This document shows positions 1,077 through 59,033 of a DNA stretch of 64,000 nucleotides, in pieces. Made by a program: the position numbers and the translations under genes. Under the pieces are notes generated by a model, which did no database searches, was not told the origin of the DNA, and worked only from the letters and a program-made list of their open reading frames with translations. The stretch spans positions 1 through 64,000 of the forward strand of contig NZ_JALQCW010000058.1 of NCBI RefSeq assembly GCF_023241715.1, written 5' to 3'. This DNA is from Pseudomonas morbosilactucae. GTDB lineage: Bacteria > Pseudomonadota > Gammaproteobacteria > Pseudomonadales > Pseudomonadaceae. The stretch's first letter is position 1. Each line of letters starts with the position of its first letter.

Positions 1077-1243
1077 TTAAGATTCAACTCAACTCTGGTA
1101 TTTGAGGCTCAATTAGGCCATGTTTAGCCGGCTACTGGACGTCGGCCATGGACATGTCGGACAGGGATATCGCAAACACTAAAGACGACAGTTAATGCAG
1201 TCACACTCGGGCATAAGATCCGAGGTTAGCGATAAGGACGGGG

Positions 1244-1525: not shown

Positions 1526-1538
1526 ACGTCCCCCGGGC

Positions 1539-2108: not shown

Positions 2109-2200
2109 CTCGCTCCCCTTCGATTCATCACCTTGACGCATGGCGGATCGTAGCATAACGTTCGTTTAGTTAACGACCGTTTACCAAAGAGCGATTCCCC

Positions 2201-2941
2201 ATGACCCACACTGCCAACAATAAAAAAGTCGTACTGGTGGTCGGCGCCGGTGACGCCACTGGCGGAGCCATTGCCAAGCGCTTTGCCGCTGAAGGCTTTT
2301 TCGCCTGTGTTACCCGCCGCAGCGCCGAGAAGCTGCAACCCCTGGTGGACGCCATCCAGGCCGTAGGAGGTGAAGCCCAGGGCTTTGCCTGTGACGCGCG
2401 CAAGGAAGAAGAGGTGGTCGCGCTGATTGAGCAGATCGAAACCCAGATCGGCCCCATCGAAGCCATGGTGTTCAACATCGGCGCCAATGTGCCGTGCAGC
2501 ATCCTTGAAGAGACCGCGCGCAAATACTTCAAGATCTGGGAAATGGCGTGCTTTTCAGGCTTCCTCAATGCCCGGGAAGTGGCCAAGCGCATGGTCACCC
2601 GCCAGCGCGGCAGCATTCTGTTTACCGGTGCCACCGCTGGCCTGCGCGGTGCGGCAGGTTTCGCCGCCTTCGCCGGGGCCAAGCACGGCATCCGAGCCTT
2701 GGCGCAAAGCATGGCCAGGGAGCTGGGCCCCTTGAACATCCACGTCGCCCACGTGGTGGTCGACGGCGCCATCGATACCGACTTTATCCGCGACAATTTC
2801 CCGGAAAAGTACGCCCTCAAGGATCAGGACGGCATCCTCAACCCCGAACACATTGCCGAAAACTACTGGTACCTGCACAGCCAGCCCCGGGATGCCTGGA
2901 CCTTCGAGCTCGACCTGCGGCCCTGGAACGAACGCTGGTAA
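2201..2941 (+). CDS. SDR-family protein with altered catalytic residues
   Basis: Short-chain dehydrogenase/reductase-like protein of 246 residues with the Rossmann glycine motif GAGDATGGAIAKRF near residue 15 and the FNIGAN segment replacing the usual NNAG. The catalytic YxxxK is read here as FAGAK (in GFAAFAGAKHG), so the tyrosine is phenylalanine, and the usual active-site serine region reads FTGATAG. It may therefore bind NAD(P)H without ordinary dehydrogenase chemistry, or use another acid. It is followed 31 bp downstream by a DsbA/HCCA-isomerase-like gene, probably in one operon controlled by the divergent TetR regulator. Confidence 0.8.
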   Translation: MTHTANNKKVVLVVGAGDATGGAIAKRFAAEGFFACVTRRSAEKLQPLVDAIQAVGGEAQGFACDARKEEEVVALIEQIETQIGPIEAMVFNIGANVPCSILEETARKYFKIWEMACFSGFLNAREVAKRMVTRQRGSILFTGATAGLRGAAGFAAFAGAKHGIRALAQSMARELGPLNIHVAHVVVDGAIDTDFIRDNFPEKYALKDQDGILNPEHIAENYWYLHSQPRDAWTFELDLRPWNERW

Positions 2942-2972
2942 GCCCCTCCCCGATCACGACAAGGAGTTTGCC

Positions 2973-3566
2973 ATGCGCAAATCCGTGGAGTTTTTCTTCG
3001 ACCTCGGCAGTCCCACCTCGTACCTGGCCTACACCCAATTGCCAGGGATCTGCGCCGCCACCGACAGCCAACTGATCTACCAGCCGATGCTGCTGGGCGG
3101 CGTCTTCAAGACCACCGGCAATGCCTCGCCGATCACCATCCCCGCCAAGGGGCGCTACATGCTCCAGGACCTGGCTCGCTACGCCAAACGCTACCGGGTG
3201 ACGCTTAATTTCAACCCGCACTTCCCCATCAATACCTTGCTGCTGATGCGCGCCGTCACCGGCATGCAGATGCACCACCCGGAACGCCTGACGGCATTTT
3301 TGGATTGTCTGTTCCAGGCGCTCTGGGTCGACCAGCGCAACCTCAACGATCTGGCAGTGGTCAGCGAGGTGCTGGAGGCGGCCGGTTTCGAGCCCCATGC
3401 GGTGCTCGACCTGTGCAACAACGAGGCGGTTAAGAGCGCGCTTAAGGACAAGACCGAGCACGCCCTGCAGCGTGGCGTATTCGGTGCGCCCAGCCTGTTT
3501 GTGGGTGACCAGTTGTTTTTCGGCCAGGACCGGCTGGACTTCGTGCGCGAAGCCCTGGAGGGCTAA
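2973..3566 (+). CDS. 2-hydroxychromene-2-carboxylate isomerase/DsbA-like protein
   Basis: Thioredoxin-fold protein of 197 residues from the HCCA isomerase / kappa-class glutathione transferase group. It starts KSVEFFFDLGSPTSYLAY, where the FDxxSPxSY signature marks this family and a serine replaces the DsbA CxxC. The C-terminal GVFGAPSLFVGDQLFFGQDR is the typical cis-proline and ending of the family. The ATG at 2973 has the ribosome site AAGGAG. It probably forms an operon with the SDR; members act in aromatic-ring degradation or glutathione-dependent isomerisation, but the substrate is unknown. Confidence 0.82.
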   Translation: MRKSVEFFFDLGSPTSYLAYTQLPGICAATDSQLIYQPMLLGGVFKTTGNASPITIPAKGRYMLQDLARYAKRYRVTLNFNPHFPINTLLLMRAVTGMQMHHPERLTAFLDCLFQALWVDQRNLNDLAVVSEVLEAAGFEPHAVLDLCNNEAVKSALKDKTEHALQRGVFGAPSLFVGDQLFFGQDRLDFVREALEG

Positions 3567-3572
3567 GCGCAG

Positions 3573-3608
3573 CGGCGCGCCAGCCAGCCGAAAGCTGGTG
3601 GCGCGCCG
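3573..3608. terminator. strong stem-loop between convergent genes
   Basis: A near-perfect GC-rich inverted repeat (outer arms CGGCGCGCCA / TGGCGCGCCG, inner arms CCAGC / GCTGG, loop CGAAA) lies between the 3' ends of the DsbA-like gene and the aminopeptidase gene. There is no clear T-run, so it is likely a bidirectional transcript-end structure rather than a textbook intrinsic terminator. Confidence 0.55.
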
Positions 3609-3614
3609 TCTCCC

Positions 3615-5417
3615 TCAGATCGCCGCCGTGCGGACCTGCAACCACTCCAGCGCGGCGCCCTGCAACAGTGGGCTCAACCGCTCGCAAACCTCGGCGTGAT
3701 AGGCGTTGAACCAAGCCCGCTCATCCTCGGTCAGCAAGCTCGGCTCCAGACACCGCGTGTCGATCGGGCAGAGGGTCAGGGTTTCAAAACGCAGGAACTC
3801 ACCGAACTCGGTCTGCCCCGCCTCACGGTTCAACACCAGGTTCTCGATTCGAACGCCCCAGCGCCCGGGACGATAAGTCCCTGGCTCGATGGAGGTAATC
3901 ATTCCCGGCTGCATGGCCGTCTGTGGCGCCACCGCCGCCTGATAGGCGATCACTTGCGGGCCCTCGTGGACATTGAGGAAATACCCCACGCCATGCCCGG
4001 TGCCATGCCCGTAATCCACACCCTCGGCCCAGATCGGCGCGCGCGCGATGGCGTCCAGCAACGGCGACAGAATGCCCCGCGGAAACTGTGCCCGGGACAA
4101 GGCAATCACGCCCTTGAGCACCCGGGTGCAATCGCGTTTCTGCTCGGCAGTCGGCGTGCCGATGGGCACCATGCGCGTGATATCGGTGGTGCCGCCCAGG
4201 TACTGGCCACCGGAATCGATCAACAACAAACCATCACCTTCGATCAGCGCGTGCTCGGCCGGCGTGGCGTGGTAATGGGGCATGGCGCCATTGGCATTGA
4301 ACGCTGCAATGGTGTTGAAACTCAGCGATACAAACCCCGGGCGTCGGGCACGAGCAGCACTCAGGTGCTCATCGATGGTCAGCTCGGTGATGCGCTCCGT
4401 GCCCAGGGCCGTCTCCAGCCAGGCAAAAAACTCGCACAGCGCTGCACCGTCCTGCTCCATGGCCTGACGGATGTGCTCAGCATCCGCCAGGCTTTTCTGC
4501 GACTTGGCCAACGTACTGGGGTTCAAGCCCTCCACCAAGCGGACGCCATCCTGCACATTGTTCAGCAACCCGGCGGTGACCCGTGCCGGGTCGATCTGCA
4601 GGCTCGCGCCCACCGGCACCGCACCCAGGGCCGCCGCCACCTCGTGGTAGTCACGCAAGGTGACGCCGTCCTGCTCCAGCACCGCGCGCAAGGCGTCATC
4701 CACTTTGCTCAGGGCCACAAACAAGGTGGCCTGCTCTTGGCTGATCAGGGCGAAGGACACAAACACCGGGTTGAACGAAACATCTGCACCCCGCAGGTTA
4801 AACAGCCAGGCGATGTCATCCAGGGTGGCGATAAAGTGCCAATCAGCTCCCCGCTCCTTGAGGCTTTCCCGTACCCGGGCCAGCTTCTCCACCCGGCTGA
4901 CCGTGGCCTGGGGTGGCAAGTGTTGATAGATCGGTTGGTCCGGCAAGGCCGGGCGGTCGCTCCAAAGCTCATTCAACAGGTCCAGATCCGTGCGCAACTG
5001 CGCCCCGCGTTCCTGCAACTTGGCGCCCAGGGTCCGCGCGGCGGCCACCGCCATCACCGCTCCATCCACCGCCACCACCCCAGCGGACGGTGTGTGCTCG
5101 GCCAACCAGTCCAGCGGGCCGGGTTGGCCCGGACGCAGCTTGACCAACTCGATGCCACTGCCATCCAGCTCTTTCGCCGCCTGCTCCCAGTAACGGCTAT
5201 CGGCCCAGACCCCGGCAAAGTCGCCGGTGATGATCAGAGTACCCACCGAGCCGTGGAACCCCGACAACCACTGGCGCCCCTGCCAGTAACCCGGCAAGTA
5301 TTCCGACAGATGCGGGTCCGCCGACGGCACCAGCAAGGCATGAATGCCCTCGCGGCGCATCAGCTCACGGGTCTGCGCCAGGCGCTGGGGAACCACGGGC
5401 AAAGGCTGGGTAGTCAT
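3615..5417 (-). CDS. M24-family Xaa-Pro aminopeptidase
   Basis: Cytoplasmic metallo-aminopeptidase of 600 residues that removes an N-terminal residue preceding proline. Length and layout match the long, three-domain aminopeptidase P type: two creatinase-like N-terminal domains followed by a pita-bread catalytic domain. All five metal ligands are visible: Asp in LLIDSGGQY (about 400), Asp in GTTDITR (about 412), His in GHGTGHGVG (about 472), Glu in SIEPGTY (about 507) and Glu in RIENLVL (about 523). It lies 60 bp downstream of the cysteine desulfurase gene on the same strand and may be cotranscribed with it. Confidence 0.88.
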   Translation of the reverse strand: MTTQPLPVVPQRLAQTRELMRREGIHALLVPSADPHLSEYLPGYWQGRQWLSGFHGSVGTLIITGDFAGVWADSRYWEQAAKELDGSGIELVKLRPGQPGPLDWLAEHTPSAGVVAVDGAVMAVAAARTLGAKLQERGAQLRTDLDLLNELWSDRPALPDQPIYQHLPPQATVSRVEKLARVRESLKERGADWHFIATLDDIAWLFNLRGADVSFNPVFVSFALISQEQATLFVALSKVDDALRAVLEQDGVTLRDYHEVAAALGAVPVGASLQIDPARVTAGLLNNVQDGVRLVEGLNPSTLAKSQKSLADAEHIRQAMEQDGAALCEFFAWLETALGTERITELTIDEHLSAARARRPGFVSLSFNTIAAFNANGAMPHYHATPAEHALIEGDGLLLIDSGGQYLGGTTDITRMVPIGTPTAEQKRDCTRVLKGVIALSRAQFPRGILSPLLDAIARAPIWAEGVDYGHGTGHGVGYFLNVHEGPQVIAYQAAVAPQTAMQPGMITSIEPGTYRPGRWGVRIENLVLNREAGQTEFGEFLRFETLTLCPIDTRCLEPSLLTEDERAWFNAYHAEVCERLSPLLQGAALEWLQVRTAAI

Positions 5418-12903: not shown

Positions 12904-13350
12904 ATGATCAGCAAAGACAACATCCACAAGGAATTGACCGTCGGCCAGCTCGCCCAGCGCAGCGGCGTGGCGGTTACGGCCCTGCACTTCTACGAGTCCA
13001 AGGGGCTGATCAGCAGCAATCGCAACGCGGGCAACCAGCGCCGCTACCATCGAGAAGTACTGCGCCGGGTGGCCTTGATCAAAATCGCCCAGCGCCTGGG
13101 TATTCCGCTGGCCACCATCGGCGAAGCCCTGCGAGCCTTGCCCGACGGCCGCGCGCCTACCGCAGCGGACTGGAAAAACCTCTCGGCCCAATGGCGCAAT
13201 GACCTGGACAACCGCATCAACCAACTGATCTGGCTGCGTGATCAACTCAACGGTTGCATCGGCTGCGGTTGCCTGTCCATGGAAGCCTGCCCGCTGCGCA
13301 ACTTTGGCGACGTGCTGGGCGAGCGCGGGCCGGGGATTCATTTGGATTGA
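12904..13350 (+). CDS. soxR: redox-sensing MerR-family activator SoxR
   Basis: Regulator of 148 residues with a [2Fe-2S] cluster oxidised by redox-cycling compounds such as phenazines. The MerR helix-turn-helix is [21 protein letters not shown] near residue 11, followed by [18 protein letters not shown]. The cluster ligands are four cysteines in [12 protein letters not shown] (about residues 118-129), the SoxR signature CX2CXCX5C. It is divergent from an ABM monooxygenase with a SoxR box between, so it probably activates that gene. No soxS is expected in Pseudomonas. Confidence 0.93.
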
Positions 13351-13404: not shown

Positions 13405-13437
13405 CTATAGGAGCCGGCGTGCCGGCGATAGCGCCCT
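13405..13437. repeat. REP-type palindromic element
   Basis: The core GCCGGCGTGCCGGC (13413-13426) with flanks TATAGGAG and GATAGCGCCC matches the Pseudomonas fluorescens REP element family. It sits between soxR and the four-gene AAA+/helicase cluster, marking the left edge of that cluster. Such elements often form transcript-end stem-loops. Confidence 0.7.
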
Positions 13438-13529: not shown

Positions 13530-15368
13530 ATGCCACGGACTGCTTCCTTCGAAAAGCCACGCTGGCTTCGCGACCTGCTGCGTTTCCTGCCCCTGAAAAG
13601 TCAATTCGTGCTGTCCGGCAACGTCCGCGACCTGCAGGCCAGTGAAGTGGCGCCCGGGGTCATCACGCCCCAGGCCTTCAACCTCAACCTGCGCGACGAA
13701 TTGCTGGCGGCCGGCTACAGCCAGGTCATCAGTTGGGACCCACTGGCCGGCTTTCGAGTGCTGCAGCCCCCAGGCGCCGACCTGGCGATCGCCGACACTC
13801 TGCTGCGCGAGCTCGGCCTGACCCCGGTGGAAGGCAGCGCGCCAGCCGGCACCGACCTGCTCAGCGCCACCCTGCAACGGCTGGTCAATCGCACCGGCGA
13901 ACCGCTGGCGCTGATTGTCGATTTCGCCTCGCGCCTGGTCATCCGCAACGACGCCCTGACCGCCGCCGAGCACCAGCTCTTCACCCAGGCCCTGGTGCTG
14001 TCCCACCAGGCCCGTGGGCGCCCGGCCGGCGAGCAGCGCAAACCGTTTTTCAACAGCATTCTCTGGGTGGTGGAAAAAGAAGGCGACTTGCCGGACTGGA
14101 TGCTGATCGACAACCCTCGGCTGCGCCATATTCCCGTCTCCAAACCGGACCAGCAGGCCCGCCTGGCCCTGGCGCCGGCGTTGTTACGTGGCCTGGCCGG
14201 CAGCCAGGACGCCAGTGAAGAAACCCAGCAAAAAGCCGCCCAGGCCTTTGCCGAGAACACCGAAGGCTTGTTGCTGCTCGACCTCAATGCCATTGCCCAA
14301 CTGGCCCGGGTCGAAGGCCTGGCCCTGGAGCGCATCGGCGATGCAGTGCGGCGCTACAAGGTCGGGGTCACCGAAGACCCGTGGTTGAAGATCGACCGTC
14401 AGCGGATTCGCCAGGCCGATGACTTCATCCGCCAGCGGGTCAAGGGCCAAAGCCACGCCGTGACCCACATGCTGGATATCGTCAAGCGCGCCATGACCGG
14501 GGTCGGTGCCAGCCGCAAGGGCAACCGCCCCCGGGGCGTGGCCTTCCTCGCCGGCCCGACCGGGGTGGGCAAGACCGAGTTGGCGAAAACCATCACCAGC
14601 CTGCTGTTCGGCGATGAAAGCGCATACATCCGCTTCGATATGTCGGAATTCAGTGCCGAACACGCCGACCAGCGTCTGGTCGGTGCGCCACCCGGCTATG
14701 TCGGCTACGACGTTGGCGGCGAACTGACCAATGCCATCCGCGAAAAACCCTTCAGCGTGGTGCTGTTCGATGAAATCGAAAAAGCCCACCCGCGCATCCT
14801 CGACAAGTTTTTGCAGATCCTCGACGACGGCGTGCTCACCTCGGGCCGGGGCGACCGGGTGTATTTTTCCGAGGCGCTGATTGTCTTCACCTCCAACCTC
14901 GGTATCTACCGTCAGGGCGACAACGGCGAACGGGTGGCCAACGTGTTGCCCGGGGAAACCTTCCCGGTGGTCCAGGGCAAGGTTCTGAGCGAAATCGAGC
15001 GCTACTTCAAACTGGTGCTCAACCGCCCGGAGATCCTTAACCGGATCGGCGAAAACATCATCGTCTTCGACTTCATCCGCGAGGACGTGGCCGGGGAAAT
15101 CTTCCACCAGATGGTCGGCAATACCCTGGCCGACCTCACCGCCCAGGCGCTGCACATCGAGCTGGAAGCCGGCTCCCTGCAAAGCCTGCGCGCCCTGTGC
15201 CTGCATGACCTGTCCAACGGCGGCCGGGGCATCCGCAACCAGCTCGAAGCGCACCTGATCAACCCGCTGGCCAGGGCCCTGTTCGACCAGGACGCCCAAC
15301 CCGGCGAGCACTTCCTGATCAGCCAGTTGAACGCTGAAGGCCTGCTGCTGGAACGTCGTACGCTGTGA
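13530..15368 (+). CDS. ClpB-like AAA+ ATPase of the four-gene cluster
   Basis: AAA+ protein of 612 residues. The C-terminal half is a Clp/HSP100 D2-type module: Walker A GPTGVGKTELAK (about 345), pore loop GYVGYDVGG (about 390), Walker B VVLFDEIEKAHP (about 411), sensor-1 IVFTSNLG, and RPEILNRIGENIIVFDF, as in ClpB. The N-terminal 300 residues look like a degenerate first AAA domain: they open LKSQFVLSGNVRDL and include ALIVDFASRL but no Walker A. There is no ClpB N-domain or M-domain. It is first in a cluster with the radical-SAM gene (4-bp overlap), the giant helicase and a coiled-coil gene. It may be an unfoldase or remodeller for one of them; function unknown. Confidence 0.82.
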   Translation: MPRTASFEKPRWLRDLLRFLPLKSQFVLSGNVRDLQASEVAPGVITPQAFNLNLRDELLAAGYSQVISWDPLAGFRVLQPPGADLAIADTLLRELGLTPVEGSAPAGTDLLSATLQRLVNRTGEPLALIVDFASRLVIRNDALTAAEHQLFTQALVLSHQARGRPAGEQRKPFFNSILWVVEKEGDLPDWMLIDNPRLRHIPVSKPDQQARLALAPALLRGLAGSQDASEETQQKAAQAFAENTEGLLLLDLNAIAQLARVEGLALERIGDAVRRYKVGVTEDPWLKIDRQRIRQADDFIRQRVKGQSHAVTHMLDIVKRAMTGVGASRKGNRPRGVAFLAGPTGVGKTELAKTITSLLFGDESAYIRFDMSEFSAEHADQRLVGAPPGYVGYDVGGELTNAIREKPFSVVLFDEIEKAHPRILDKFLQILDDGVLTSGRGDRVYFSEALIVFTSNLGIYRQGDNGERVANVLPGETFPVVQGKVLSEIERYFKLVLNRPEILNRIGENIIVFDFIREDVAGEIFHQMVGNTLADLTAQALHIELEAGSLQSLRALCLHDLSNGGRGIRNQLEAHLINPLARALFDQDAQPGEHFLISQLNAEGLLLERRTL

Positions 15369-16009
15369 ACATCAGCCTGTCGCGGGTGCACTTCCCGGTC
15401 ACCACCCTCGGCCCGGGACGGCGCCTGGGCATCTGGTTCCAGGGTTGCAGCATCCGCTGCGAGGGCTGTATTTCCGCCGACACCTGGGGCCCCGGCAAAC
15501 AGCCGCTGGCCCTGGAACAATTGCTGGAGGACATCCAGCCCTGGCTGGTCGAGGCCGAGGGCATCACCCTTTCGGGCGGCGAACCCTTCGACCAGCCCGA
15601 GGCCCTGCTGGCCTTGCTCGGCGCCCTGCGCCAACGCACCCGGGCCGACATCCTGGTCTACAGCGGGCACACCCTGGAGACCCTGCAACCCCTGCTGCAA
15701 CGCGCCCAAGGTTTGCTCGATGCATTGATTTGCGACCCCTTCGAGCAACAACAGGCGCAAACGCGGGTCCTACGCGGCAGCGATAACCAACGCCTGATTT
15801 TTTTCACCGAGCTGGGTCGTCAACGCCTGGGCGCCTACGAGCGTCCCTTGCAGGCTGACGACCGGGCCCTGGACCTGATGTTCGATGACGATGGCAGCGT
15901 CTGGATGGCCGGCATCCCTCGCCGTGACGACTTGTTGCACCTGCGCGACCTGTTGCACGACCAGGGCCACCAACTCCAGATCAGCGCCCATACCTCACGC
16001 CGCCGTTAA
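15365..16009 (+). CDS. radical-SAM activase-like protein (NrdG/PflA group)
   Basis: A 214-residue radical-SAM protein starting at the GTG that overlaps the preceding stop by 4 bp, so translation is probably coupled. The [4Fe-4S] motif CSIRCEGC (CX3CX2C, about residues 28-35) sits in GIWFQGCSIRCEGC, and the SAM-binding motif LSGGEPFDQPEAL follows near residue 70. This is the size and layout of glycyl-radical-enzyme activases such as NrdG. No glycyl-radical enzyme is encoded nearby, so the target is more likely a partner in the cluster. Catalytic class is firm, role unknown. Confidence 0.85.
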   Translation: MNISLSRVHFPVTTLGPGRRLGIWFQGCSIRCEGCISADTWGPGKQPLALEQLLEDIQPWLVEAEGITLSGGEPFDQPEALLALLGALRQRTRADILVYSGHTLETLQPLLQRAQGLLDALICDPFEQQQAQTRVLRGSDNQRLIFFTELGRQRLGAYERPLQADDRALDLMFDDDGSVWMAGIPRRDDLLHLRDLLHDQGHQLQISAHTSRRR

Positions 16010-16024
16010 CCGGAATTGCCCCCG

Positions 16025-19000
16025 ATGATACGTTTTTGCCCCAACTGCCAGACCGCACGCCCGCTGGCGGAAATCTTTTGCGAAGGCCAACTGGCGGATC
16101 ACCGCCCCTGTGGCTGGGAGCTGTCCGCCGAGGCCATTCACCCCGATGGCTGGCACCCGCAACCGGTGATCACCCAGGAACGGTTGGCGCAGCAACAGCA
16201 GGCCCTGGAGGCCGCACCCGTTGGCCTGCATTGCAGCGCCGGCCACCCCATGGACCCGGGCGACATGATGTGCCTGGTCTGCGGCGCCGACCCAGCCAGC
16301 GCCGAACCTGCCACCCCCGACAGTGAGCCCGTACCGGCCAGCACCAGCCCGGAACCGGCAGCCGCCAGCGGCGAAACCGTGATCGATGGCTGGCGCCTGC
16401 TGCGCCAGATCAGCAGCACCGGGGTCCGCGAACGCTTTATGGCCGAGCACCTGGACAACGCCCACCAGGCGGTGCTGACCCTCTACCAGGCCGGTGCCGA
16501 ACCCGACCCGGCGGTCTACGAAGTGCTCAAGCGCCTGCCCCGCGAGCACGTGCCGGACATCATCGCCACCGGCCGTTGGGACGAACGCGCCTATGAAGTG
16601 GCCGAAGAACTCACCGGCGGCACCCTGGCCGACCTGGGGATGGTGGTCACCGACGTGAGCGCGGTGCAGCACATCGTCCGCGAACTGGGCCAGGCCCTGC
16701 ATGCCTTCAGCGAAGCCGGCCTGCGCCACCGCGACCTGCGCCCGGCAACCCTGCTGGTGCGCAGCCGCGAACCGCTGGACCTGGTGATCAGCGGCTTCGG
16801 TTCGGCGCGCCTGTCAGAGTTCGACCTGGACATCGTCTCGCCCCTGGAAACCAGCCGCTACATGGCCCCCGAAGCGATTGCCGGCGGCGTGGCTGCAGCG
16901 TCGGACTGGTGGAGCCTGGGCATGATCCTGCTCGAACAGTTGACCCAGGGCGCCTGCTTTGCCGGCATCAATGCCAATGCCTACCTGATCCATATCCTCG
17001 CCAACGGCGTGCTGCTGCCCGAGGACCTGGACCCGCAACTCGACCTGCTGCTGCGCGGCCTGCTGGCCCGGGATCGCCACCAACGCTGGCAATGGCCGCA
17101 GGTCCAGGCCTGGCTCAACGGCGAGGCGGTCAGCGCCCCCGCCGCCATGGCCGCCGAAGAAGACAACGCCGAAGGCGCGACCCTGACCCTGGGCGACCGG
17201 CGCTTTCGCAAACCCCGGCTGTTTGCCCTGGCGGCCGCCGAAGCCCAGCACTGGGCCCAGGCCCTGGATCACCTGCTGCGCGGGGTGATCGTGACCTGGG
17301 CCGAGCAAGCCGGCTTGGCCCCCAAGCTGCTGGCCGGCCTGCGCCAGGTGGTCCAGCACGAAGGCCTGGAAGACGACGTGCGGCTGATGCTCGCGCTCAA
17401 GCTGCTGAACCCGGAAATGCCCTTGATCCAGCGCGGCGACATCGTCACCCCGGGCTGGCTGCTGGAACACCCCCTGGACGGTTATCGCCTGATCAGCGGC
17501 CCGGCCCCCGACCTGCTGGAACGCCTGGAAACCGAACACTGGCTGACCCGGCTCAAGGTGCGCGCCGAGCAAGTGCGTCAGCGCGCCCAGCACCAGTCCA
17601 TCGAGCTGGACGAAGACCAGTTGCGTATCTACCTGCTCTCTACCTCCCGTGCACGCCTGGCGGCGCAGTGGGAAGAGCGCCAGCGCTTGCTGCCCGACAG
17701 TGAGCACCACGGCGTGCTGTCGCTGTCGGACCGCCGGTTGATCAGCGAAGAAGACCTGATCGTGCTGCTCAGCGCCGCCATCGGCCAGTTCCGCTCGGTG
17801 GACGCGATCCTCGAAGAAGCCGCGCAACTGGCCCGCGACGCCGTGGTGCTGAGCTTCGAAACCGACGCTGCACAGGCTTTGCTGGAACAGCCACGGCCGC
17901 AGATTTACCGCGATGTCGACGAGCGCATCAGTGGTTTCGCCCGCTGCGGCGTGCCGGCAATCGACGACTGGGCCGAGCAGTTCCGCCTGGAGCGGCGCAT
18001 GCCATTGGCCCGGGCCCTGGTGCTGTTGGCGATCCCGGCCGAGCAATGGCTGGAGCCGCAAAAACAGCACTATGTGTCGCAGATTCTGGATTTCTTCGAG
18101 AAGAAGGTCGCCAGCGTAGTGATGCGCGGGCCCCTGGTGCGCATGAGCATCGGCAAAACCACGGCCCGGGTCGACCTGCACGAACTGCACAGCGAGCGCA
18201 GCGCCGCGCCAGCGCTGCTCGATCACTTGGTGGCGCGTAACGCGCAGCCGATTGCTCTGGACCCGGGCTGCTTCGCTGGCAACGACGGGCTGGAGGGGCG
18301 CTTGAACAGCCTGTACCGGCAAAGCTCGCTGTACAAACGCGACACCGGCATCGACGGCCTGTACCTGGGCTTCCCCTTCCTCCTGACCCGCGACCCGCGC
18401 GGCACCACCCGCACCCGCATCGCCCCGCTGCTGCTGTGGCCGGTCAAGCTGCTGCTGGAAGTCGGCAGCCGGGGCCAGGTGTCCCTGGTGTTCGACAGCG
18501 AACGCGAAGAAGTGCGGCTCAACCCCGGCCTGGAAACCCTGCTCGGCATCGACGCCAGCAAGGTCTGGCGCAAGACCGCCGACGAACTGCTGGGGCGTTC
18601 GGCACTCAAGGCCGCCGACGTGATGGACGCCTTCGGCATGCTCGCCACCGCCCGCTCGCGAGTCCTGGGCGCACTGCCGCCAGCGACCACCGAAGTGCTG
18701 GCCTACCAGGACCAGTTGGCCTGCGCCGCGGTGCTGTTCCACGTGGCCTTTATGGGCCAGGCCATTGGCGAAGACCTGCGCCAGCTCAAGGCCCTGCCGC
18801 CCGGTGGCACCGGCTTGGAAACCGCCCTGCGCCTGAATGAAGGCAGCACCCAGGCACCGCCCATGGAGGTGGTGCCAGAGCTGCAGCGCTTCTTTACCGT
18901 GGCCAGCGACCCGTCCCAGGAAGCCGCCGTGCTCCAGGCCCGGCAAGCCCCCGGGCTGCTGGTAGAGGGCCCGCCCGGCACCGGCAAGAGCCAGACCATC

Positions 19001-22000
19001 GTCAACATGGTGGCCGACGCCATCGGCCGCCAACGCAGCCTGTTGATCGTCTGCCAGAAGCACGCTGCCCTGGAGGTGGTGCACAAGCGCCTGGTGGCCG
19101 AAGGCCTGGGCAACCGTATCGTCATGCTCAATGACATCAACCGCGACCGCGAACCGGTGATCCGCAGCGTGCGCGAACAACTGGAAGCCCTGTTCAAGGT
19201 CGAGGTGCTGGAGCAACCCTGGCTGCGCCAGCGTGAACGCCTGGCGGCGCGCATCGAAGCCCTGGAAGGCGAGCTGGACCGTTTCCACCAGAGCCTGCAC
19301 CGCCTCGATGAACACACGGGCTTGAGTTACCGGACCCTGCTCGGCGAACTGATCGGCCTGGAGCAAGGGGCTCCGCCCCTGGACATGCCGGTGCTGCGCC
19401 AGCGCCTGGCAGCTCTGGACATCGCCGACCTGACCCGCCTGGAAGAAGCCTGCGCCCCCCTGACCCGGCTGTGGTTGCCGGCCCGTTATGAACACAGCGT
19501 GCTGGCCCAGGTCCAGGCCTTCCCCACCGACAAGGCCAGCCTGCAAGCCTTCGACAGCAGCCTGCGGGCGTTCCAGGCCGCCGAAAGCACGCGCCTGCAG
19601 ACCCTGCAAGCGCACCCGGCAAGCTTCGAGGTCGAGGACCCGGCGCCTTACCGCGCCTGGCTCGACGGCCATGTGCAAAGCCTGCTCGGCCTTGATGACA
19701 ACCATCGCCACCTGCTGGCTCGCTGGCTGCCGCTGTTTCGCAGCCATGGCGGCGAAACGCCTCAGGGCGACGGCCTGATCCAGGCACTGGAACAGCTGGA
19801 CCTGCAATTGCAACAGTGCGACCCGGCCCATTACCTGGCCAACCTGTCCCCGGCCCTCAGCGCCTTGCCGGCCGCCGAACTGCGCGCGCTGCAGCAGCGC
19901 ACCCGCAGCCTGATCCAGGGCCAGTCGTGGTGGGCCCGGCTCAACCCACTGCGCCTGCTGCGGCGGAGCAAAGTCCTGGGGTTCCTTAGCGAACACGGTG
20001 ACAACGCCGGCGAACAACGGCTGCCGGCCTTGCTCAACGCCGCGTTGCTGGAAAACCAATGGCGCCCGCTGCGCAACCAGCTCGGCCAGTTGCATCAACA
20101 GCTGGGCCTGGCTGACGTCACCGCCGACATCGGCCTGAGCCTGCACCCGCTGGTGCGCAACGACCTGCGGCAACTGCAGGAAATCGGCGCCCTGGCCCAG
20201 GGCCTGGCCGAAGCGCCACGGGTCGACCAGGTGGACGCCGCCATCCTCACGGGTGAGCGTCAATCCCTGGACGCCCTGCTGGCCGACTACGACGCGGCCT
20301 TTATCCGCTGCAATGTGCGCCAGCTCAGCCTCGCCGCCCTGCAACGCCTGGGCGACTGGCTGGAGCCACCGCTGTTGGCGCAACTGCACACTGCAGTGAG
20401 CCAGAACCAGAGCAACCTGCTGGTGCTGAACCGCCTGGACGATGCCCTGCCCACGCTGGCGGCCTATCAGCAATTCCGCAGCCGGGTCGGCCAACTGTCA
20501 GCCGCCGACCTTGAGCTGTTCGCCGTGCTGCGCGAACAACAGGCGTCTCTGGATGCCGTGCCGCCCGAGCAACTGGAAGCGCTGGTCCGCCGCCTGCTCA
20601 ATCGCGAGGCGCGCCTGGGCTGGAAGCGCCGCATGGAACAACAACTGCCGGAGCTGATGCTGGAGCAAAGCGAAACCGCGGCGAAAATCGCCAGCCTGGC
20701 CGAAGCCGATGCGCAGATGCGCCTGCTCAACCGCCAGTTGCTCAGCGAAGGCATCGACGCCGCGCGCTTGGGCACCCGCAAACAGTGGGAAGACGTGACG
20801 CGCCTGACCGGTCGCCGCTCGCGACGCCTACGGGAATTCATCGAGATGGGGTCGAGCCTGGGCCTGATGAGCCTGCGCCCGGTATGGCTGATGAACCCCG
20901 ATGTGGCCAGCCGGGTGCTGCCCCTCAAGCCCGGCCTGTTCGACATCGTGATCTACGACGAAGCCTCGCAGATGCCCGTGGAGTTCGCCCTGCCAACCCT
21001 GTATCGCGGGCGGGTCACGGTGGTCAGTGGCGATGAAAAGCAAATGCCGCCGACGGCGTTTTTCTCCAGCCGGGTCGAGAGCGACGAGGCCGAACTGTTC
21101 GACGGCGACCTGCCCGACGACCAGGACAACGAAGAACAGCGCGAGCAATTCGAAGACACCTGGAACCGCCGCGAGATCAAGGACTGCCCGGACCTGCTGC
21201 AACTGGCCCGCAGCTCGCTGCCGGCCACCACCTTGCAGATCCACTACCGCTCGGCCTACCGCGAGCTGATTGGCTTTTCCAACGCCTCGTTCTATGGCAA
21301 CCGCCTGAGCATTCCGGTGCGCCACCCAGAGGCCAACATCCTCAGCATCAAGCCCCTGGAGCTGATCCGCGTCGACGGCCTCTACCAGCAACAGACCAAC
21401 GCCCTGGAAGCCGAGCGCGTGGTCGAGCACCTGGCCCAACTGTGGCTGACACCTTACGAGGCGCGGCCGTCAGTGGGCGTGGTGACCTTCAACCGCAAGC
21501 AGGCCGACCTGATCGAGGAATGCCTGGAACGCCGCGCCGAGCAAGACCCGGTGTTCCGCGCCGCTTACAGCCAGGAGCGGGAACGCAGTGAAGACGGCGA
21601 AGACATGTCGGTGTTCGTCAAGAACGTGGAAAACGTCCAGGGTGACGAGCGCGACATCATCGTCTTCTCCTCGACCTTTGGCCGTAACAGCCAGGGCAGC
21701 TTCCGCCGCAACTTCGGCGTGCTCGGGCAGACCGGAGGCGAACGGCGGCTCAATGTGGCGGTGACCCGGGCGCGGAAAAAGGTGGTGATGATCACCTCGA
21801 TGCCAATCGCCGACATCTCCGACATGCTCAGCACCCAGCGCCCGCCGGCCAGCCCCCGGGACTACCTGCAGGGCTACTTGGAATACGCAAGGGCGCTGTC
21901 CGCCGGGGAGTTCAGCACCAGCCAGAACGTGCTCGGCCGCTTGCTCACCGAGCGCCCGGAAGTGCGCCTGCAACACAGCGCCCACAGCGACGGCTTTACC

Positions 22001-22378
22001 CAGGCCGTGGCGGCCTTTGTGCAAAGCCTGGGCTGGACCGCCGCGCCGGCCAACGAAGGCGATGCCTTCGGCCTGGATTTCGCCATCGAGAACCCGGCCA
22101 CCGGGCTCTACGCCATCGGCATCGAGTGCGACACCCCACGCCACGCCCTGCTCAGCCGCGCCCGCTCGCGGGAAATCTGGCGGCCGTCGGTGTTGCGCCG
22201 GGCCATTCCCCATATCCATCGGGTTTCGTCCCAGGGCTGGTACCAGGATGGCGACGCCGAGCGCGCACGCCTGCAAGCCGCCATCGAGCGCGCCTTGAGC
22301 CTGGCAGTGGTGACCCCGGTCACCGTCACCGAGCCCGAAACAGCGCAGCCCCTCCTCGACACGGAAGACACCCCATGA
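16025..22378 (+). CDS. giant zinc-ribbon/pseudokinase/SF1 helicase/nuclease fusion
   Basis: A 2117-residue multidomain protein. Domains in order: zinc ribbon (CPNC at 5-8, Cys19, Cys29); a second Cys/His cluster near 70-86 (HCSAGH, CLVC); a protein-kinase-like domain at about 118-370 with HRDLRPATLL, YMAPEA and SDWWSLGM but GFG for DFG; a long helical region; a UPF1/COG1112-type SF1 helicase with Walker A GPPGTGKS (about 980), an insert of some 650 residues, DEAS (about 1640), GDEKQMPP, ENVQGDERDIIVFS and NVAVTRARKKV; then a Vsr/PD-(D/E)XK-like C-terminal domain (about 1977-2085) with IGIECD and PHIHRVSSQGWY. Kinase-helicase fusions of this kind are known in Mokosh-type phage defence, but this partner set is unfamiliar. 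I start at the ATG at 16025. The stop overlaps the next gene (ATGA). Confidence 0.8.
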   Translation: MIRFCPNCQTARPLAEIFCEGQLADHRPCGWELSAEAIHPDGWHPQPVITQERLAQQQQALEAAPVGLHCSAGHPMDPGDMMCLVCGADPASAEPATPDSEPVPASTSPEPAAASGETVIDGWRLLRQISSTGVRERFMAEHLDNAHQAVLTLYQAGAEPDPAVYEVLKRLPREHVPDIIATGRWDERAYEVAEELTGGTLADLGMVVTDVSAVQHIVRELGQALHAFSEAGLRHRDLRPATLLVRSREPLDLVISGFGSARLSEFDLDIVSPLETSRYMAPEAIAGGVAAASDWWSLGMILLEQLTQGACFAGINANAYLIHILANGVLLPEDLDPQLDLLLRGLLARDRHQRWQWPQVQAWLNGEAVSAPAAMAAEEDNAEGATLTLGDRRFRKPRLFALAAAEAQHWAQALDHLLRGVIVTWAEQAGLAPKLLAGLRQVVQHEGLEDDVRLMLALKLLNPEMPLIQRGDIVTPGWLLEHPLDGYRLISGPAPDLLERLETEHWLTRLKVRAEQVRQRAQHQSIELDEDQLRIYLLSTSRARLAAQWEERQRLLPDSEHHGVLSLSDRRLISEEDLIVLLSAAIGQFRSVDAILEEAAQLARDAVVLSFETDAAQALLEQPRPQIYRDVDERISGFARCGVPAIDDWAEQFRLERRMPLARALVLLAIPAEQWLEPQKQHYVSQILDFFEKKVASVVMRGPLVRMSIGKTTARVDLHELHSERSAAPALLDHLVARNAQPIALDPGCFAGNDGLEGRLNSLYRQSSLYKRDTGIDGLYLGFPFLLTRDPRGTTRTRIAPLLLWPVKLLLEVGSRGQVSLVFDSEREEVRLNPGLETLLGIDASKVWRKTADELLGRSALKAADVMDAFGMLATARSRVLGALPPATTEVLAYQDQLACAAVLFHVAFMGQAIGEDLRQLKALPPGGTGLETALRLNEGSTQAPPMEVVPELQRFFTVASDPSQEAAVLQARQAPGLLVEGPPGTGKSQTIVNMVADAIGRQRSLLIVCQKHAALEVVHKRLVAEGLGNRIVMLNDINRDREPVIRSVREQLEALFKVEVLEQPWLRQRERLAARIEALEGELDRFHQSLHRLDEHTGLSYRTLLGELIGLEQGAPPLDMPVLRQRLAALDIADLTRLEEACAPLTRLWLPARYEHSVLAQVQAFPTDKASLQAFDSSLRAFQAAESTRLQTLQAHPASFEVEDPAPYRAWLDGHVQSLLGLDDNHRHLLARWLPLFRSHGGETPQGDGLIQALEQLDLQLQQCDPAHYLANLSPALSALPAAELRALQQRTRSLIQGQSWWARLNPLRLLRRSKVLGFLSEHGDNAGEQRLPALLNAALLENQWRPLRNQLGQLHQQLGLADVTADIGLSLHPLVRNDLRQLQEIGALAQGLAEAPRVDQVDAAILTGERQSLDALLADYDAAFIRCNVRQLSLAALQRLGDWLEPPLLAQLHTAVSQNQSNLLVLNRLDDALPTLAAYQQFRSRVGQLSAADLELFAVLREQQASLDAVPPEQLEALVRRLLNREARLGWKRRMEQQLPELMLEQSETAAKIASLAEADAQMRLLNRQLLSEGIDAARLGTRKQWEDVTRLTGRRSRRLREFIEMGSSLGLMSLRPVWLMNPDVASRVLPLKPGLFDIVIYDEASQMPVEFALPTLYRGRVTVVSGDEKQMPPTAFFSSRVESDEAELFDGDLPDDQDNEEQREQFEDTWNRREIKDCPDLLQLARSSLPATTLQIHYRSAYRELIGFSNASFYGNRLSIPVRHPEANILSIKPLELIRVDGLYQQQTNALEAERVVEHLAQLWLTPYEARPSVGVVTFNRKQADLIEECLERRAEQDPVFRAAYSQERERSEDGEDMSVFVKNVENVQGDERDIIVFSSTFGRNSQGSFRRNFGVLGQTGGERRLNVAVTRARKKVVMITSMPIADISDMLSTQRPPASPRDYLQGYLEYARALSAGEFSTSQNVLGRLLTERPEVRLQHSAHSDGFTQAVAAFVQSLGWTAAPANEGDAFGLDFAIENPATGLYAIGIECDTPRHALLSRARSREIWRPSVLRRAIPHIHRVSSQGWYQDGDAERARLQAAIERALSLAVVTPVTVTEPETAQPLLDTEDTP

Positions 22379-23708
22379 GCGGCCCCAAAGTCGTACGCAT
22401 CGTCACCCGCGAAGAAATCCTCGCGATCTGCGCCGGCCACCTGCGCCGCCTGGAAACAGCCATCGCCCGCTGGGAACAGCACGCCACGCGGATCGGTGAA
22501 CTCAACGCCAGCGAACAGGCCGCCACCTACGCCCGTCGCGACCAGCTACAGCGCTTGATCGACGCCGACCAACTGCGCGAGCTGCAAACCCGAGTGCCCA
22601 TCGAGATCGAGTTTCTCCAGCGGGACCTGGCACAGCGTGAAGCGCGGGCGGTACAGCGCGCCACCGAGCAGCGGCAATGGCAGCGGCGCCTGCGGGAGAA
22701 TGCCGCGACCCTGCTCAAGGCCCTGCACGACAAGGACGCGCCAGCCGCACTGCTGGAGCAACTGCAAGCCCTGGCGGACGGCCAAGGCAGCGAGCAGGCC
22801 GAACGCATTCTGGCTCAGGGCTTTGCTGCCTTGAGCACAGCACCGGCGGAAAGTCGCCTGAGCGAAGCGCAACAGCAATTGGCCCGCCGCCTGCAAACCG
22901 ACAGCGCACCGCTGACCCTGGCCCAATGGCGCGCGGCCCATGAACAACGTGAACCCCGCCTGCTGGACATCGACCGCCATATCGCCCACCTGCAAACCCT
23001 CGACAGCCACGCCAGCGCCGAACCGTACTTGGCCAAGCTGACGTTGATCGAAGAGGAACACCGGCCCCAGCAACGCAACCTGCTGCTCGACAGCCTGGTC
23101 CTGGAATTGGCCGCGCCACCCGTGCCTGCAACGAGCGCCGGGCGCGCTGGGCGCAGTTGCAGGACCTGGCGGCGGAAGTCGAGACCCTGCTGGGCGAGAC
23201 CGCGGAGGCCTTGCTGAAGCAGGTGCAACAGTGCACGGCCGAGGATCTGGAAACAGTCAGCGCGCTGAGCGAGCAATGCACCGCGCTGATCGCCGAGCAT
23301 CTGCAACAGCAAGCCGCCCTGGCTCGCCGCCAGGCGGTATTGGAAGGCCTGAGCAGCCTGGGTTATGAAGTGCGCGAAGGCATGGCCACGGCCTGGGCGG
23401 AAAAGGGCCGGGTGGTACTGCGCAAGACCGCGACCCCGGGCTACGGCGTTGAAGTCGGCGGCAGCGCCGACAATGGCCGCCTGCAAGTGCGTGCGGTGGC
23501 ACTGACGGCCAACCACGACACCCAGCGCGACAAGGACATCGAAACCATCTGGTGCAGCGAATTCCAGCGTTTGCAGGCACTGCTCGCCGCCCAGGGCGAT
23601 GACCTGAGCATCGAAAAAGCCCTGGCGGTCGGCGCCGTGCCACTTAAGGAAGTGGCGCTGGACGCCGCTCTGGAACAGCAGGACGTGCGTCAGCTGCGGA
23701 CCTTGTAA
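22375..23708 (+). pseudogene. coiled-coil protein of the four-gene cluster, frameshifted
   Basis: Fourth gene of the cluster, coupled to the helicase gene by an ATGA overlap. The reading frame from MSGPKVVRIVTREEIL runs to about 23115, then continues in the next frame (AEVETLLGETAEALL to the TAA at 23706). One base appears missing near 23110-23118; restoring it gives an intact protein of roughly 444 residues. The first 250 residues are helical and rich in Arg, Glu, Gln and Leu, as in long coiled coils. The last 130 residues form a compact domain (KGRVVLRKTATPGYGVEVGG, then ALTANHDTQRDKDIETIWC). I recognise no family. The shift may be real or a sequencing error, since two similar ones occur in this window. 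Confidence 0.7.
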
Positions 23709-23734
23709 CAGCGCCCGGCGAGCACCGGGCGCTG
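23709..23734. terminator. stem-loop between the cluster and metQ
   Basis: A perfect 10-bp inverted repeat (CAGCGCCCGG / CCGGGCGCTG, loop CGAGCA) lies directly after the stop of the coiled-coil gene and before the 3' end of convergent metQ. Only a short T-run follows (AGTTT), so it may serve both strands. Confidence 0.6.
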
Positions 23735-23744
23735 AGTTTCCCCA

Positions 23745-24515
23745 TCAGAAGCCCGGTGCAATCTGCCCTTTGTAGCGGGTCAGGATGAACTGGCGCACCG
23801 CATCGGAATTCAACGCCTTGGCCAGTTTCTGAATCCGCGGATCGTTGATGTTGTCCGGACGCGCCACCAGGAATTCGATGTATAGGTCCTTGCCCTTCTC
23901 CACGATCAGCGCGCTGTTGGTGTCGATCCCGGCTTCCAGGGCGTAGTTGGCAAACACAAAGGCCAGGTCCACCTGGCTCACCGAACGGGCCAGCAAGGCC
24001 CCTTCCAGCTCACGGATTTTCAGGTGCTTGGGGTTCTCTGCGATATCGCGCTGGGTGGCCAGGGTGTTGCTCGGGTCTTTGAGTTTGATCAGGCCGGCTT
24101 CGTGCAGCAGCACCAGGGCGCGACCGGTGTTCACTGGGTCATTGGGGATAGACACCGTGGCGCCGTCCTTCAATTCGGCAATGTTCTTGATCCTGGTCGA
24201 GTAGGCACCAAAGGGTTCGATGTGCACACCCACCACCGGCACCAGGTCGGTGTGCCGGGTCTTGTTGAAGTCATCGAGAAACGGCCGGTACTGGTAATAG
24301 TTGGCGTCCAGGTTCTTCAGCGCCAACTGCTGGTTGGGCTGGATAAAGTCGGTGAAGACCTTGATGTCCAGGTCAACGCCTTCCTTGGCCAACTCGGGTT
24401 TGACGAATTCAAGGATCTCCGCGTGGGGCACCGGGGTGGCACCGACGATCAGTTTTTCATTGGCGTGAGCGCTCAACGACAGGACGGCGGCCAGGATGGC
24501 CAGGGACTTTTTCAT
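23745..24515 (-). CDS. MetQ/NlpA-family ABC substrate-binding protein
   Basis: Periplasmic binding protein of 256 residues related to MetQ (EKLIVGATPVPHAEIL near residue 20, LDANYYQYRPFLDDFN, SIPNDPVNTGRALVLL). It has a signal peptide ending SAHA but no lipobox cysteine, unlike classical NlpA lipoproteins, so it should be a soluble periplasmic protein. It is last in the operon sfnB-metI-metQ. The context argues for a sulfur compound such as methionine, a sulfoxide or another organosulfur ligand taken up during sulfate starvation. The exact ligand is not predictable. Confidence 0.85.
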   Translation of the reverse strand: MKKSLAILAAVLSLSAHANEKLIVGATPVPHAEILEFVKPELAKEGVDLDIKVFTDFIQPNQQLALKNLDANYYQYRPFLDDFNKTRHTDLVPVVGVHIEPFGAYSTRIKNIAELKDGATVSIPNDPVNTGRALVLLHEAGLIKLKDPSNTLATQRDIAENPKHLKIRELEGALLARSVSQVDLAFVFANYALEAGIDTNSALIVEKGKDLYIEFLVARPDNINDPRIQKLAKALNSDAVRQFILTRYKGQIAPGF

Positions 24516-45881: not shown

Positions 45882-45934
45882 CGATCATAGCAGAGGGTTT
45901 GGAGCCCTTAGCACCGGCAAGCCGACGCCGGCCG

Positions 45935-58963: not shown

Positions 58964-59033
58964 GGGGTTTCCTGCCAGGAGAGTGCATGCCATTGGTATC
59001 GGGATCCAGGGCACCACGCAGGAAATAATCCCT

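What the first reader, a model, noticed from the sequence alone, without database searches (positions are those of the whole stretch)
13530..23708. Uncharacterised four-gene system: AAA+ / radical SAM / pseudokinase-helicase-nuclease / coiled coil
Four genes in one orientation, with overlaps of 4 bp, a 15-bp gap and an overlap of 4 bp, are bounded by a REP element on the left and a strong stem-loop on the right. Seen in sequence: a ClpB-D2-like ATPase, a NrdG/PflA-type radical-SAM protein, a 2117-residue fusion and a coiled-coil partner. I know of no described pathway with this set. A kinase-like domain, COG1112 helicase and Vsr-like nuclease in one protein recall antiphage systems such as Mokosh, but the AAA+ unfoldase and radical-SAM activase do not belong to any defence system I can name. 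Proposed role (inference): nucleic-acid-targeting defence or stress repair with a radical-modified component.
Basis: partly seen in the sequence, partly recalled or inferred. Interest (0 to 1): 0.82.

Follow-up and report, generated by a model that had tools for sequence, protein, structure and literature searches.

The report
Candidate defence operon with radical enzyme
A four-gene bacterial operon, found in the same order across several phyla, couples an unfolding machine, a radical enzyme and a helper protein to a large DNA/RNA-cutting protein with a dead kinase inside; it looks like an unrecognised anti-phage system that evolved from a kinase signalling module.

Summary
The four genes exist as described, but gene 4 (D) is broken in this genome by one frameshift near 23114; a same-species genome has it intact. 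The AAA+/radical-SAM/helicase-fusion/D operon is not a Pseudomonas oddity: 27 of 80 loci retrieved with the radical-SAM protein carry all four genes in this order, in Pseudomonadota, Bacteroidota, Acidobacteriota, Chlamydiota and Cyanobacteriota; others lie on Rhizobium and Caballeronia plasmids. Another 34 of the 80 hold AAA+, radical SAM and D with a stand-alone Ser/Thr kinase in the locus, some with FHA and PP2C genes. All 39 stand-alone kinase rows keep the four catalytic residues checked; none of 35 helicase-fused rows does. The fused form is one clade among kinase-only forms. D has no Pfam or NCBIfam family; two separate models of its C-terminal domain best resemble KA1/AMPK kinase-associated domains (Z 6-8, weak). 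The operon resembles the right flank of Pseudomonas aeruginosa core defence hotspot 1, used in print as a boundary marker. Best reading: a nucleic-acid-targeting defence system in which a kinase signalling module was rewired to a helicase-nuclease. Defence function and the radical-SAM substrate are inferred, not shown.

The parts
13530..15368 (+). gene A: AAA+ protein, ClpB-D2-like ATPase domain at about residues 290-600 with intact Walker A/B, sensor 1, arginine finger and GYVGY pore loop; N-terminal domain unassigned
15365..16009 (+). gene B: NrdG/PflA-type radical SAM protein, CX3CX2C and GGE motifs intact
16025..22378 (+). gene C: 2117-aa fusion: zinc ribbon, pseudokinase, DUF4011, SF1 helicase, MTES_1575 nuclease
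16520..17104 (+). pseudokinase domain of C (residues 166-360)
   Evidence: Pfam; lost catalytic residues
18281..18544 (+). DUF4011 part of C (residues 753-840)
18908..21799 (+). split SF1 helicase of C (AAA_11 962-1084, AAA_12 1732-1925)
   Evidence: motifs
21995..22285 (+). REase_MTES_1575 (Vsr-like) nuclease of C (residues 1991-2087)
   Evidence: D..ExCD residues
22375..23708 (+). gene D: coiled coil plus C-terminal alpha/beta domain (KA1-like by weak fold match on relatives); frameshifted near 23114 in this genome (frames 22375-23217 and 23157-23708)
13411..13432 (+). REP-like element left of the operon
23710..23733 (.). 9-bp stem-loop right of the operon, no T run
   Evidence: read by eye; not called
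12904..13350 (+). left flank: MerR-family regulator, SoxR-like by its CxGCxC cluster read by eye
23745..24515 (-). right flank: NlpA-type lipoprotein, next to an importer permease gene

Best explanation
The operon is a nucleic-acid-targeting defence system built on an older signalling module. SHOWN by sequence: AAA+ (A), radical SAM (B) and the D protein occur with a Ser/Thr kinase in many phyla; in one clade, which includes the window, the kinase protein is fused to a DUF4011 / SF1 helicase / MTES_1575 nuclease and has lost catalytic residues, while the ATPase, radical-SAM, helicase and nuclease motifs stay intact. INFERRED mechanism: C is the effector, a helicase that engages foreign or damaged nucleic acid and cuts it with its C-terminal nuclease. 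The pseudokinase no longer phosphorylates and serves as a docking site for D, whose coiled coil and KA1-like domain hold C inactive, as KA1 domains restrain their kinases (recalled). A is a threading unfoldase that strips or remodels D/C on a trigger (a phage protein or stalled fork) and so switches the nuclease. B makes a 5'-deoxyadenosyl radical and installs a maturation mark on a conserved residue of D or C (candidates: the invariant Gly-Tyr or the near-invariant Cys of the D C-terminal domain) that licenses the complex. I rate defence or foreign-DNA control at about 0.6 and this order of steps at about 0.25.
For: Order A-B-C-D in 27 of 80 rSAM-retrieved loci (one of them, L051, has B and C broken) and on Rhizobium and Caballeronia plasmids. 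Patchy presence: full-length D in 11 of 297 other genomes of the genus sample, strong D matches in 2 of 397 other Pseudomonadota genomes. Cross-phylum joins in the AAA+ tree (Bacteroidota with Hahella; Parachlamydiales MAG with Legionella) suggest transfer. PADLOC matches at 1e-10 to 98 families among 138 neighbouring ORFs of fused-form loci (shown names include LmuB, HamC, AbiEi, AriA, GajA, MkoA) against 16 families among 132 neighbours of kinase-only loci. In G708 the operon lies about 19 kb from a tRNA-Pro with Vsr, DndH-like and methyltransferase genes between, which resembles P. aeruginosa cDHS1 (PMC10250203). C matches antiphage helicase models (ProA 527 bits, candidate PDC-S37 490 bits). 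Catalytic motifs intact; kinase residues complete in 0 of 35 fused versus 39 of 39 stand-alone rows; KA1/AMPK-like domain in two separate D models.
Against: No phage test exists. In the P. protegens group the operon sits at one site beside soxR, and PMC10250203 reports merR and the DUF4011 gene in every P. aeruginosa isolate: more like core genes than a mobile cassette. No phage record carries D. The neighbour comparison is weak: the tool gives family counts, not numbers of proteins; several names may be one OLD-type protein; the control differs in taxonomy and itself holds CRISPR type III, DrmC, MzaA and caspase matches; of 9 large fused-form neighbours scanned singly 6 matched nothing. KA1 matches have Z under 8, in the range the tool calls common, other folds tie with them (spermine synthase 7.3), and Foldseek alone gave nothing below E 0.1. 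Five fused rows keep the DFG Asp and 29 the HRD Asp. No substrate of the radical SAM is identified. In the window D is broken. The P. aeruginosa link rests on the paper's wording and on G708, not on a P. aeruginosa sequence.
Confidence: 0.5

Rival explanations
1. A housekeeping or stress operon: the helicase-nuclease repairs or clears damaged nucleic acid (for example under oxidative stress), with A and B as repair or maturation factors; its place beside defence islands is only because those islands insert next to it.
For: Fixed site beside soxR in the P. protegens group; hotspot flank genes reported in every P. aeruginosa isolate and treated as core markers (PMC10250203); no phage copies of D.
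Against: 286 of 297 other genomes of the genus sample lack a full-length D; on plasmids in Rhizobium and Caballeronia; other sites within the genus; the best NCBIfam matches of C are antiphage proteins.
Confidence: 0.25
2. The radical SAM acts like NrdG/PflA on a stable glycyl radical carried by D: D would be a radical-bearing subunit and A its reactivating chaperone.
For: B is closest to NrdG/PflA activases; a Gly-Tyr pair is invariant in the D C-terminal domain, 58 of 58; one D copy (L090, second) has a sub-threshold match to a ribonucleotide-reductase barrel, 17.6 of 23.9 bits. The glycyl-radical signature around Gly-Tyr is recalled, not taken from a call.
Against: The other candidate site (PGYG near residue 356 of L022 D) loses its first glycine in many members; the arginine of the recalled signature is missing before the invariant Gly-Tyr; hosts such as Bradyrhizobium, Methylorubrum, Sphingomonas and Actinoplanes live in air as far as I recall, which is hard on a glycyl radical; the NrdG cut-off is not reached (75 of 126 bits).
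Confidence: 0.07
3. C alone is the defence protein and A, B and D are a separate chaperone/maturation cassette that only helps it fold.
For: C's helicase-nuclease part resembles other antiphage proteins (ProA, Hhe, MkoA models).
Against: A, B and D occur with kinases that have no helicase (34 of 80 loci), so they do not exist for the helicase alone; the four genes are kept together in 27 of 80 loci.
Confidence: 0.15

Closest known systems
P. aeruginosa core defence hotspot 1 right flank (PMC10250203; section 17 and term passages read)
   Same: [quoted passage not shown] G708 shows a tRNA-Pro, defence-type genes and then the full operon
   Different: The paper uses the genes as boundary markers and gives them no function in the passages read; the word AAA does not occur in it. 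I had no named P. aeruginosa chromosome to compare
ProA / Hhe / PDC-S37 antiphage or candidate helicases (NCBIfam NF058533, NF042953; PADLOC)
   Same: Large helicase proteins matched by C over its helicase and nuclease parts (527, 323 and 490 bits)
   Different: ProA and Hhe cut-offs (1500, 2000) not reached; the make-up of those systems was not checked in a paper
Mokosh (MkoA/MkoB)
   Same: Kinase-like domain and SF1 helicase in one protein (PADLOC MkoA 169 bits over the helicase)
   Different: Nuclease is MTES_1575, not a phospholipase-D type (Mokosh make-up recalled); extra AAA+, radical SAM and D
NrdG/PflA activases
   Same: Fer4_12 radical SAM, CX3CX2C
   Different: No glycyl-radical enzyme recognised among the partner proteins; NrdG cut-off not reached
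ClpB/ClpV/DolB-type AAA+
   Same: D2-type ATPase with GYVGY pore loop
   Different: 249 of 1232 bits for ClpB, D2 part only; a different N-terminal domain
FtsH ternary conflict systems with a radical SAM (PMC7159879; passages only)
   Same: AAA+-type ATPase and radical SAM in a conflict-system neighbourhood
   Different: Those are built on vWA and FtsH-type proteins; no such domain is among the Pfam matches of A, B, C or D. The radical SAMs were not compared

Membership tests
ProA (NF058533) | NCBIfam cut-off 1500 bits | tested here: not met
   527 bits, residues 950-2105
Hhe (NF042953) | NCBIfam cut-off 2000 bits | tested here: not met
   323 bits
Mokosh | MkoA helicase with kinase domain | tested here: inconclusive
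   169 bits, helicase part only, profile 791-1079 of 1112
Mokosh | phospholipase-D type nuclease (recalled) | tested here: not met
   no PLD family among the Pfam matches of the four genes; the nuclease is MTES_1575
NrdG | NCBIfam TIGR02491 cut-off 126.1 bits | tested here: not met
   75 bits
NrdG/PflA activase | radical SAM cluster CX3CX2C | tested here: met
   80 of 80 rows, window included, B matches of 200 bits or more
NrdG/PflA activase | a glycyl-radical enzyme partner | tested here: inconclusive
   none reached among Pfam or NCBIfam matches of A, C and D members; one D copy has a sub-threshold reductase match; the rest of the genome was not searched
viperin (pVip) | NF038283 cut-off 180 bits | tested here: not met
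   12.5 bits
ClpB | TIGR03346 cut-off 1232 bits | tested here: not met
   249 bits, D2 part only
MADS kinase MAD6 | NF047741 cut-off 460 bits | tested here: not met
   62.6 bits
active Ser/Thr kinase | HRD Asp, Lys+2, Asn+5, DFG Asp together | tested here: not met
   0 of 35 fused rows, the window among them; Lys+2 is lost in every fused row that has a letter there; 39 of 39 stand-alone rows have all four
KA1 domain (D) | KA1 fold | tested here: inconclusive
   Chk1 KA1 5wi2_B Z 7.6, rmsd 2.9, 89 aligned; SNF1 C-terminal domain 2qlv_A Z 7.3, rmsd 3.2, 84 aligned for the second model; no Pfam match for D and no kinase in the sequence search of solved structures
antiphage system | protects against phage | not testable with these tools
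   needs plaque assays

The most novel reading that the evidence does not exclude
AAA+, radical SAM, D and a Ser/Thr kinase (with FHA and PP2C in some phyla) form a previously unrecognised bacterial phospho-signalling machine in which a radical-SAM enzyme modifies the kinase-associated D subunit and an unfoldase resets it; the window's operon is its conversion into an antiviral nuclease whose kinase died and became a scaffold.
Probability: 0.3. Interest if true: 0.9.

Novelty: categorically new. Interest (0 to 1): 0.74.

Why it matters
If right, it adds a radical enzyme of the NrdG type and a protein unfoldase to the parts list of bacterial immunity and gives a traceable case of a live kinase becoming a dead scaffold when a helicase-nuclease was fused to it. 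It would also give the marker genes of a known P. aeruginosa defence hotspot a likely function, and it names an undescribed conserved protein family (D) with specific residues to test for radical-SAM modification.

Tried and rejected
Viperin-like nucleotide chemistry for B: viperin model 12.5 of 180 bits. A PGYG glycyl-radical site in D, suggested by five sequences: dropped, because many members have another residue for the glycine. Type VI secretion link (ClpV, FHA, PP2C and kinase together recall it): the ClpV model scores 196 of 885 bits; neighbours were not scanned for T6SS genes. An E. coli copy: no DNA match of a 1771-base helicase/nuclease stretch in E. coli genomes at the sensitivity of blastn. 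A phage copy of D: none. Foldseek alone on D: best E 0.16; sequence search of solved structures with D: two helical bundles, E 0.14 and 2.4. The top rows for the first D model are the helical part of RF2 (Z 9.3) and a designed helical protein (8.1), taken as common helical arrangements. tRNA scan of 34 loci: one tRNA-Gly beside the operon in G232, none elsewhere.

Literature: ten searches, all that were allowed, showed no paper that describes the four-gene set; I judged from listings, except PMC10250203 (section 17 and passages) and PMC7159879 (passages). Subscription papers and bioRxiv-only work are mostly not held. The locus tags PA2725-PA2728 for the P. aeruginosa copy are recalled; the search for them gave 8 papers with one to three mentions each or unrelated titles, not opened. 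What ProA refers to in print was not found.

Counting choices: D under 60 bits (L070, 28 bits), kinase under 150 bits, C under 1000 bits and an AAA+ hit under 300 bits away from a contig end (a second one in L086) were not counted. Of the 80: 61 have all four (27 fused, 34 stand-alone kinase anywhere on the same strand of the locus), 3 fused have no counted D at truncated contigs, 16 lack one or more parts, several of them at contig ends. Flank scan: 138 of 140 fused-form neighbours of at least 150 aa (2 dropped: one for the residue limit, one a truncated D; L022 and L023 left out beforehand) and 132 of 238 control neighbours, picked by hand to the residue limit. Kinase rows: the 35 fused rows are the window, L011, L012, L016, L017 and 29 of the 30 fused loci (L031 not aligned), L051 twice as fragments with gaps at some sites; the 39 stand-alone rows come from 31 of the 34 loci (L073, L089 and L098 not aligned), from L057, L061, L070, L072, L076, L082 and L084, and from L021, a plasmid kinase not adjacent to its rSAM gene. 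Tree: 70 AAA+ rows of at least 450 aa; the fused group of 31 includes the window and L036, whose C gene is cut by the contig end.
Full report
WHAT IS THERE. D is not intact: its stretch read as one frame has 6 stops and it consists of two overlapping frames. Alignment with a genome of the same species (98.6% over 21 kb) shows one base missing near 23114. Relatives keep D as one frame, including the same-species genome G084 and a Rhizobium plasmid with the same four-gene order and a 452-aa D. Whether this is a real loss or an error of a 160-contig assembly cannot be told.

DOMAINS. A carries a ClpB-D2-type ATPase domain. In 71 rows Walker A, Walker B, sensor 1 and the arginine finger are nearly invariant, and the first tyrosine of the GYVGY pore loop is kept in 70 of 71. 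B is an NrdG/PflA-type radical SAM; the three cluster cysteines and the GGE motif are kept in 80 of 80 rows. C has zinc-ribbon-like cysteine pairs at its start, a kinase-like domain, DUF4011, an SF1 helicase and an MTES_1575 nuclease. In 29 aligned C rows the key helicase residues are kept in 27 of 27 (Walker A) or 28-29 of 29, and the nuclease residues D, E and D in 29, 28 and 29 of 29. D had no Pfam match at its cut-off in the window frames, no PHROG match (L022 member) and no NCBIfam match (L022, L059, L093 and L077 members).

WIDER FAMILY. A scan of bacterial and archaeal species genomes with a profile of B returned the 80 best of 526 confirmed relatives. Profiles for A, B, C, D and the kinase on these loci give: 61 of 80 with A, B, D and a kinase region, of which 27 have the window's four-gene form (one, L051, with broken B and C) and 34 have a stand-alone kinase, mostly about 700-1260 aa; 3 more are fused forms cut by contig ends; 16 lack one or more parts. 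The 27 fall in Pseudomonas, Burkholderia, Lysobacter, Legionella, Orbaceae, Bradyrhizobium, sphingomonads, Methylorubrum, Providencia, Hahella, Flavobacteriaceae and in MAGs named Acidobacteria, Parachlamydiales, Cyanobacteria, Bradyrhizobiaceae and Alphaproteobacteria. The retrieval conditioned on B only, so the presence of A, D and the kinase is not built in. D was found by an iterated profile of its C-terminal domain in 58 ORFs; in these Gly330-Tyr331 is 58 of 58, Cys394 57, Asp386 54, Tyr357 53 and Trp393 52 (L022 numbering).

A SIGNALLING MODULE UNDERNEATH. In Synergistaceae (L093) and Hydrogenedens (L077) the A and B genes are followed by a zinc-ribbon-FHA protein and a PP2C phosphatase, with kinase and D genes beside them. 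PP2C relatives occur in 14 of 80 loci and in none of the 30 fused-form loci (classes). The profile of the zinc-ribbon-FHA protein also matches the N-terminal 60-100 residues of most kinases and C proteins (weakly in the fused forms, 19-39 bits), so the gene after B seems to begin with the same part in the different forms. The kinase active site splits cleanly: HRD Asp, Lys+2, Asn+5 and DFG Asp are all present in 39 of 39 stand-alone rows and in 0 of 35 fused rows; in the fused rows Lys+2 is always lost, while 29 keep the HRD Asp, 10 the Asn and 5 the DFG Asp (first look). In a maximum-likelihood tree of 70 AAA+ proteins the fused form is one clade (100/100), among kinase-only forms; the Verrucomicrobia next to it, with live kinase motifs, are joined at 86/61 only. 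I infer that a live-kinase module came first and that fusion to a helicase-nuclease went with loss of kinase activity. The root is at the midpoint, for drawing only, so this direction is an inference.

THE D FOLD. AlphaFold models of D from the fused form (L022, 24 sequences, pLDDT 81) and from the kinase-only form (L059, 12 sequences, pLDDT 74, pTM 0.42), about 20% identical, were compared with solved structures. For the first, KA1-type domains recur: Chk1 KA1 Z 7.6 with 89 residues aligned, AMPK 6.8, SOS2 6.6, SAD 6.4; helical rows score higher (RF2 9.3) and spermine synthase ties (7.3). For the second, the top row is the SNF1 C-terminal domain (Z 7.3, 84 residues), and SNF1/AMPK chains are 16 of the first 18 rows. 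These Z values are in the range the tool calls common and Foldseek alone gave nothing under E 0.1, so the match is a lead. It gains weight from two separate models and from the gene's place beside a kinase. That KA1 domains restrain their kinases is recalled.

DEFENCE CONTEXT. C matches PADLOC PDC-S37 (490 bits), Hhe and MkoA models and NCBIfam ProA (527 bits); the NCBIfam cut-offs are not reached. Among 138 ORFs beside fused-form loci 98 PADLOC families match at 1e-10; among 132 ORFs beside kinase-only loci 16 do, CRISPR type III and DrmC among them. The tool does not give the number of matching proteins, and the sets differ in taxonomy, so this is suggestive only. Of 9 large fused-form neighbours scanned singly, 3 matched (PDC-S06, LmuB, MkoA-like) and 6 did not. 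In G708, from another genus code of the family (1 of 25 genomes with D), the operon lies about 19 kb from a tRNA-Pro; of 7 ORFs scanned between them 4 matched PADLOC (a weak REase_II, Vsr, DndH-like, DNA methyltransferase) and 3 did not. This resembles P. [quoted passage not shown] merR and the DUF4011 gene were found in every isolate (PMC10250203, section 17). The paper treats them as boundary markers in the parts I read. I looked for the tRNA only on the left side of G708 and had no named P. aeruginosa chromosome to confirm orthology.

DISTRIBUTION. B at about 70% identity over its full length in 2 of 37 other relatives; full-length D in 11 of 297 other genomes of the genus sample, with 3 further weak matches; D in 4 of 397 other Pseudomonadota genomes, 2 of them strong; 12 plasmid records with D, 10 covering at least 80% of it; none in 50,697 phage records. 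In the P. protegens group the operon sits between soxR and nlpA (G084, G086, G074, L022; in G285 and L023 soxR is there and nlpA was not found); G294, G232, G003, G252, G306, G157, G010, L024 and L032 show none of the window's flanking genes tested in the stretches fetched. In G232 a tRNA-Gly lies beside the D end. Some cross-phylum placements rest on MAGs, where binning errors are possible.

VERDICT. Not ordinary. The set is a real, widely conserved operon whose combination matches no described system in the libraries and papers searched. The most likely function is nucleic-acid-targeting defence (about 0.6). The roles of the radical SAM and of D are inferences that can be tested directly. 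I rate it categorically new because the A/B/D/kinase module fits no known kind that I could find, although the effector half resembles a known kind of antiphage helicase-nuclease.

Noticed in passing
L019 (Moellerella wisconsensis plasmid pW18-2-a) 4584-14537: A related AAA+ (about 35% identical to A) and radical-SAM pair follows a different set: an AAA-domain protein with weak similarity to the helicase of C, a PIN-domain protein and a hypothetical protein, on a conjugative plasmid with restriction and ArdA genes nearby. It may be another effector swap on the same core.
   Followed up: partly
L018 and L021 (Paenarthrobacter and Rhodococcus plasmids): An AAA ATPase, a small hypothetical protein, a DUF2997 protein, a protein with a helix-hairpin-helix motif and a radical SAM in a row; the radical SAM is about 32-36% identical to B.
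   Followed up: partly
L020 (Calothrix plasmid pCAL6303.02) 8424-19945: A radical SAM related to B follows Hsp70 and TPR genes and precedes an AAA ATPase, on a plasmid with dynamin and vWA genes.
   Followed up: no
L090 (Leptospiraceae MAG) 1039-4982: Two D-type genes in tandem, then a PP2C gene, before the AAA+/radical-SAM pair; the second D has a sub-threshold match to a ribonucleotide-reductase barrel.
   Followed up: no
window 45899-59017: Very long ORFs on both strands (4360 aa on the - strand; 2025 and 1705 aa on the + strand); not examined.
   Followed up: no
L056, L059, L062 (Undibacterium and kin), about 14200-19260: Three ORFs of similar size and spacing recur downstream of the kinase-only operon (two of them shifted in L058), which hints at a fixed site or a linked function; compared by size only.
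   Followed up: no
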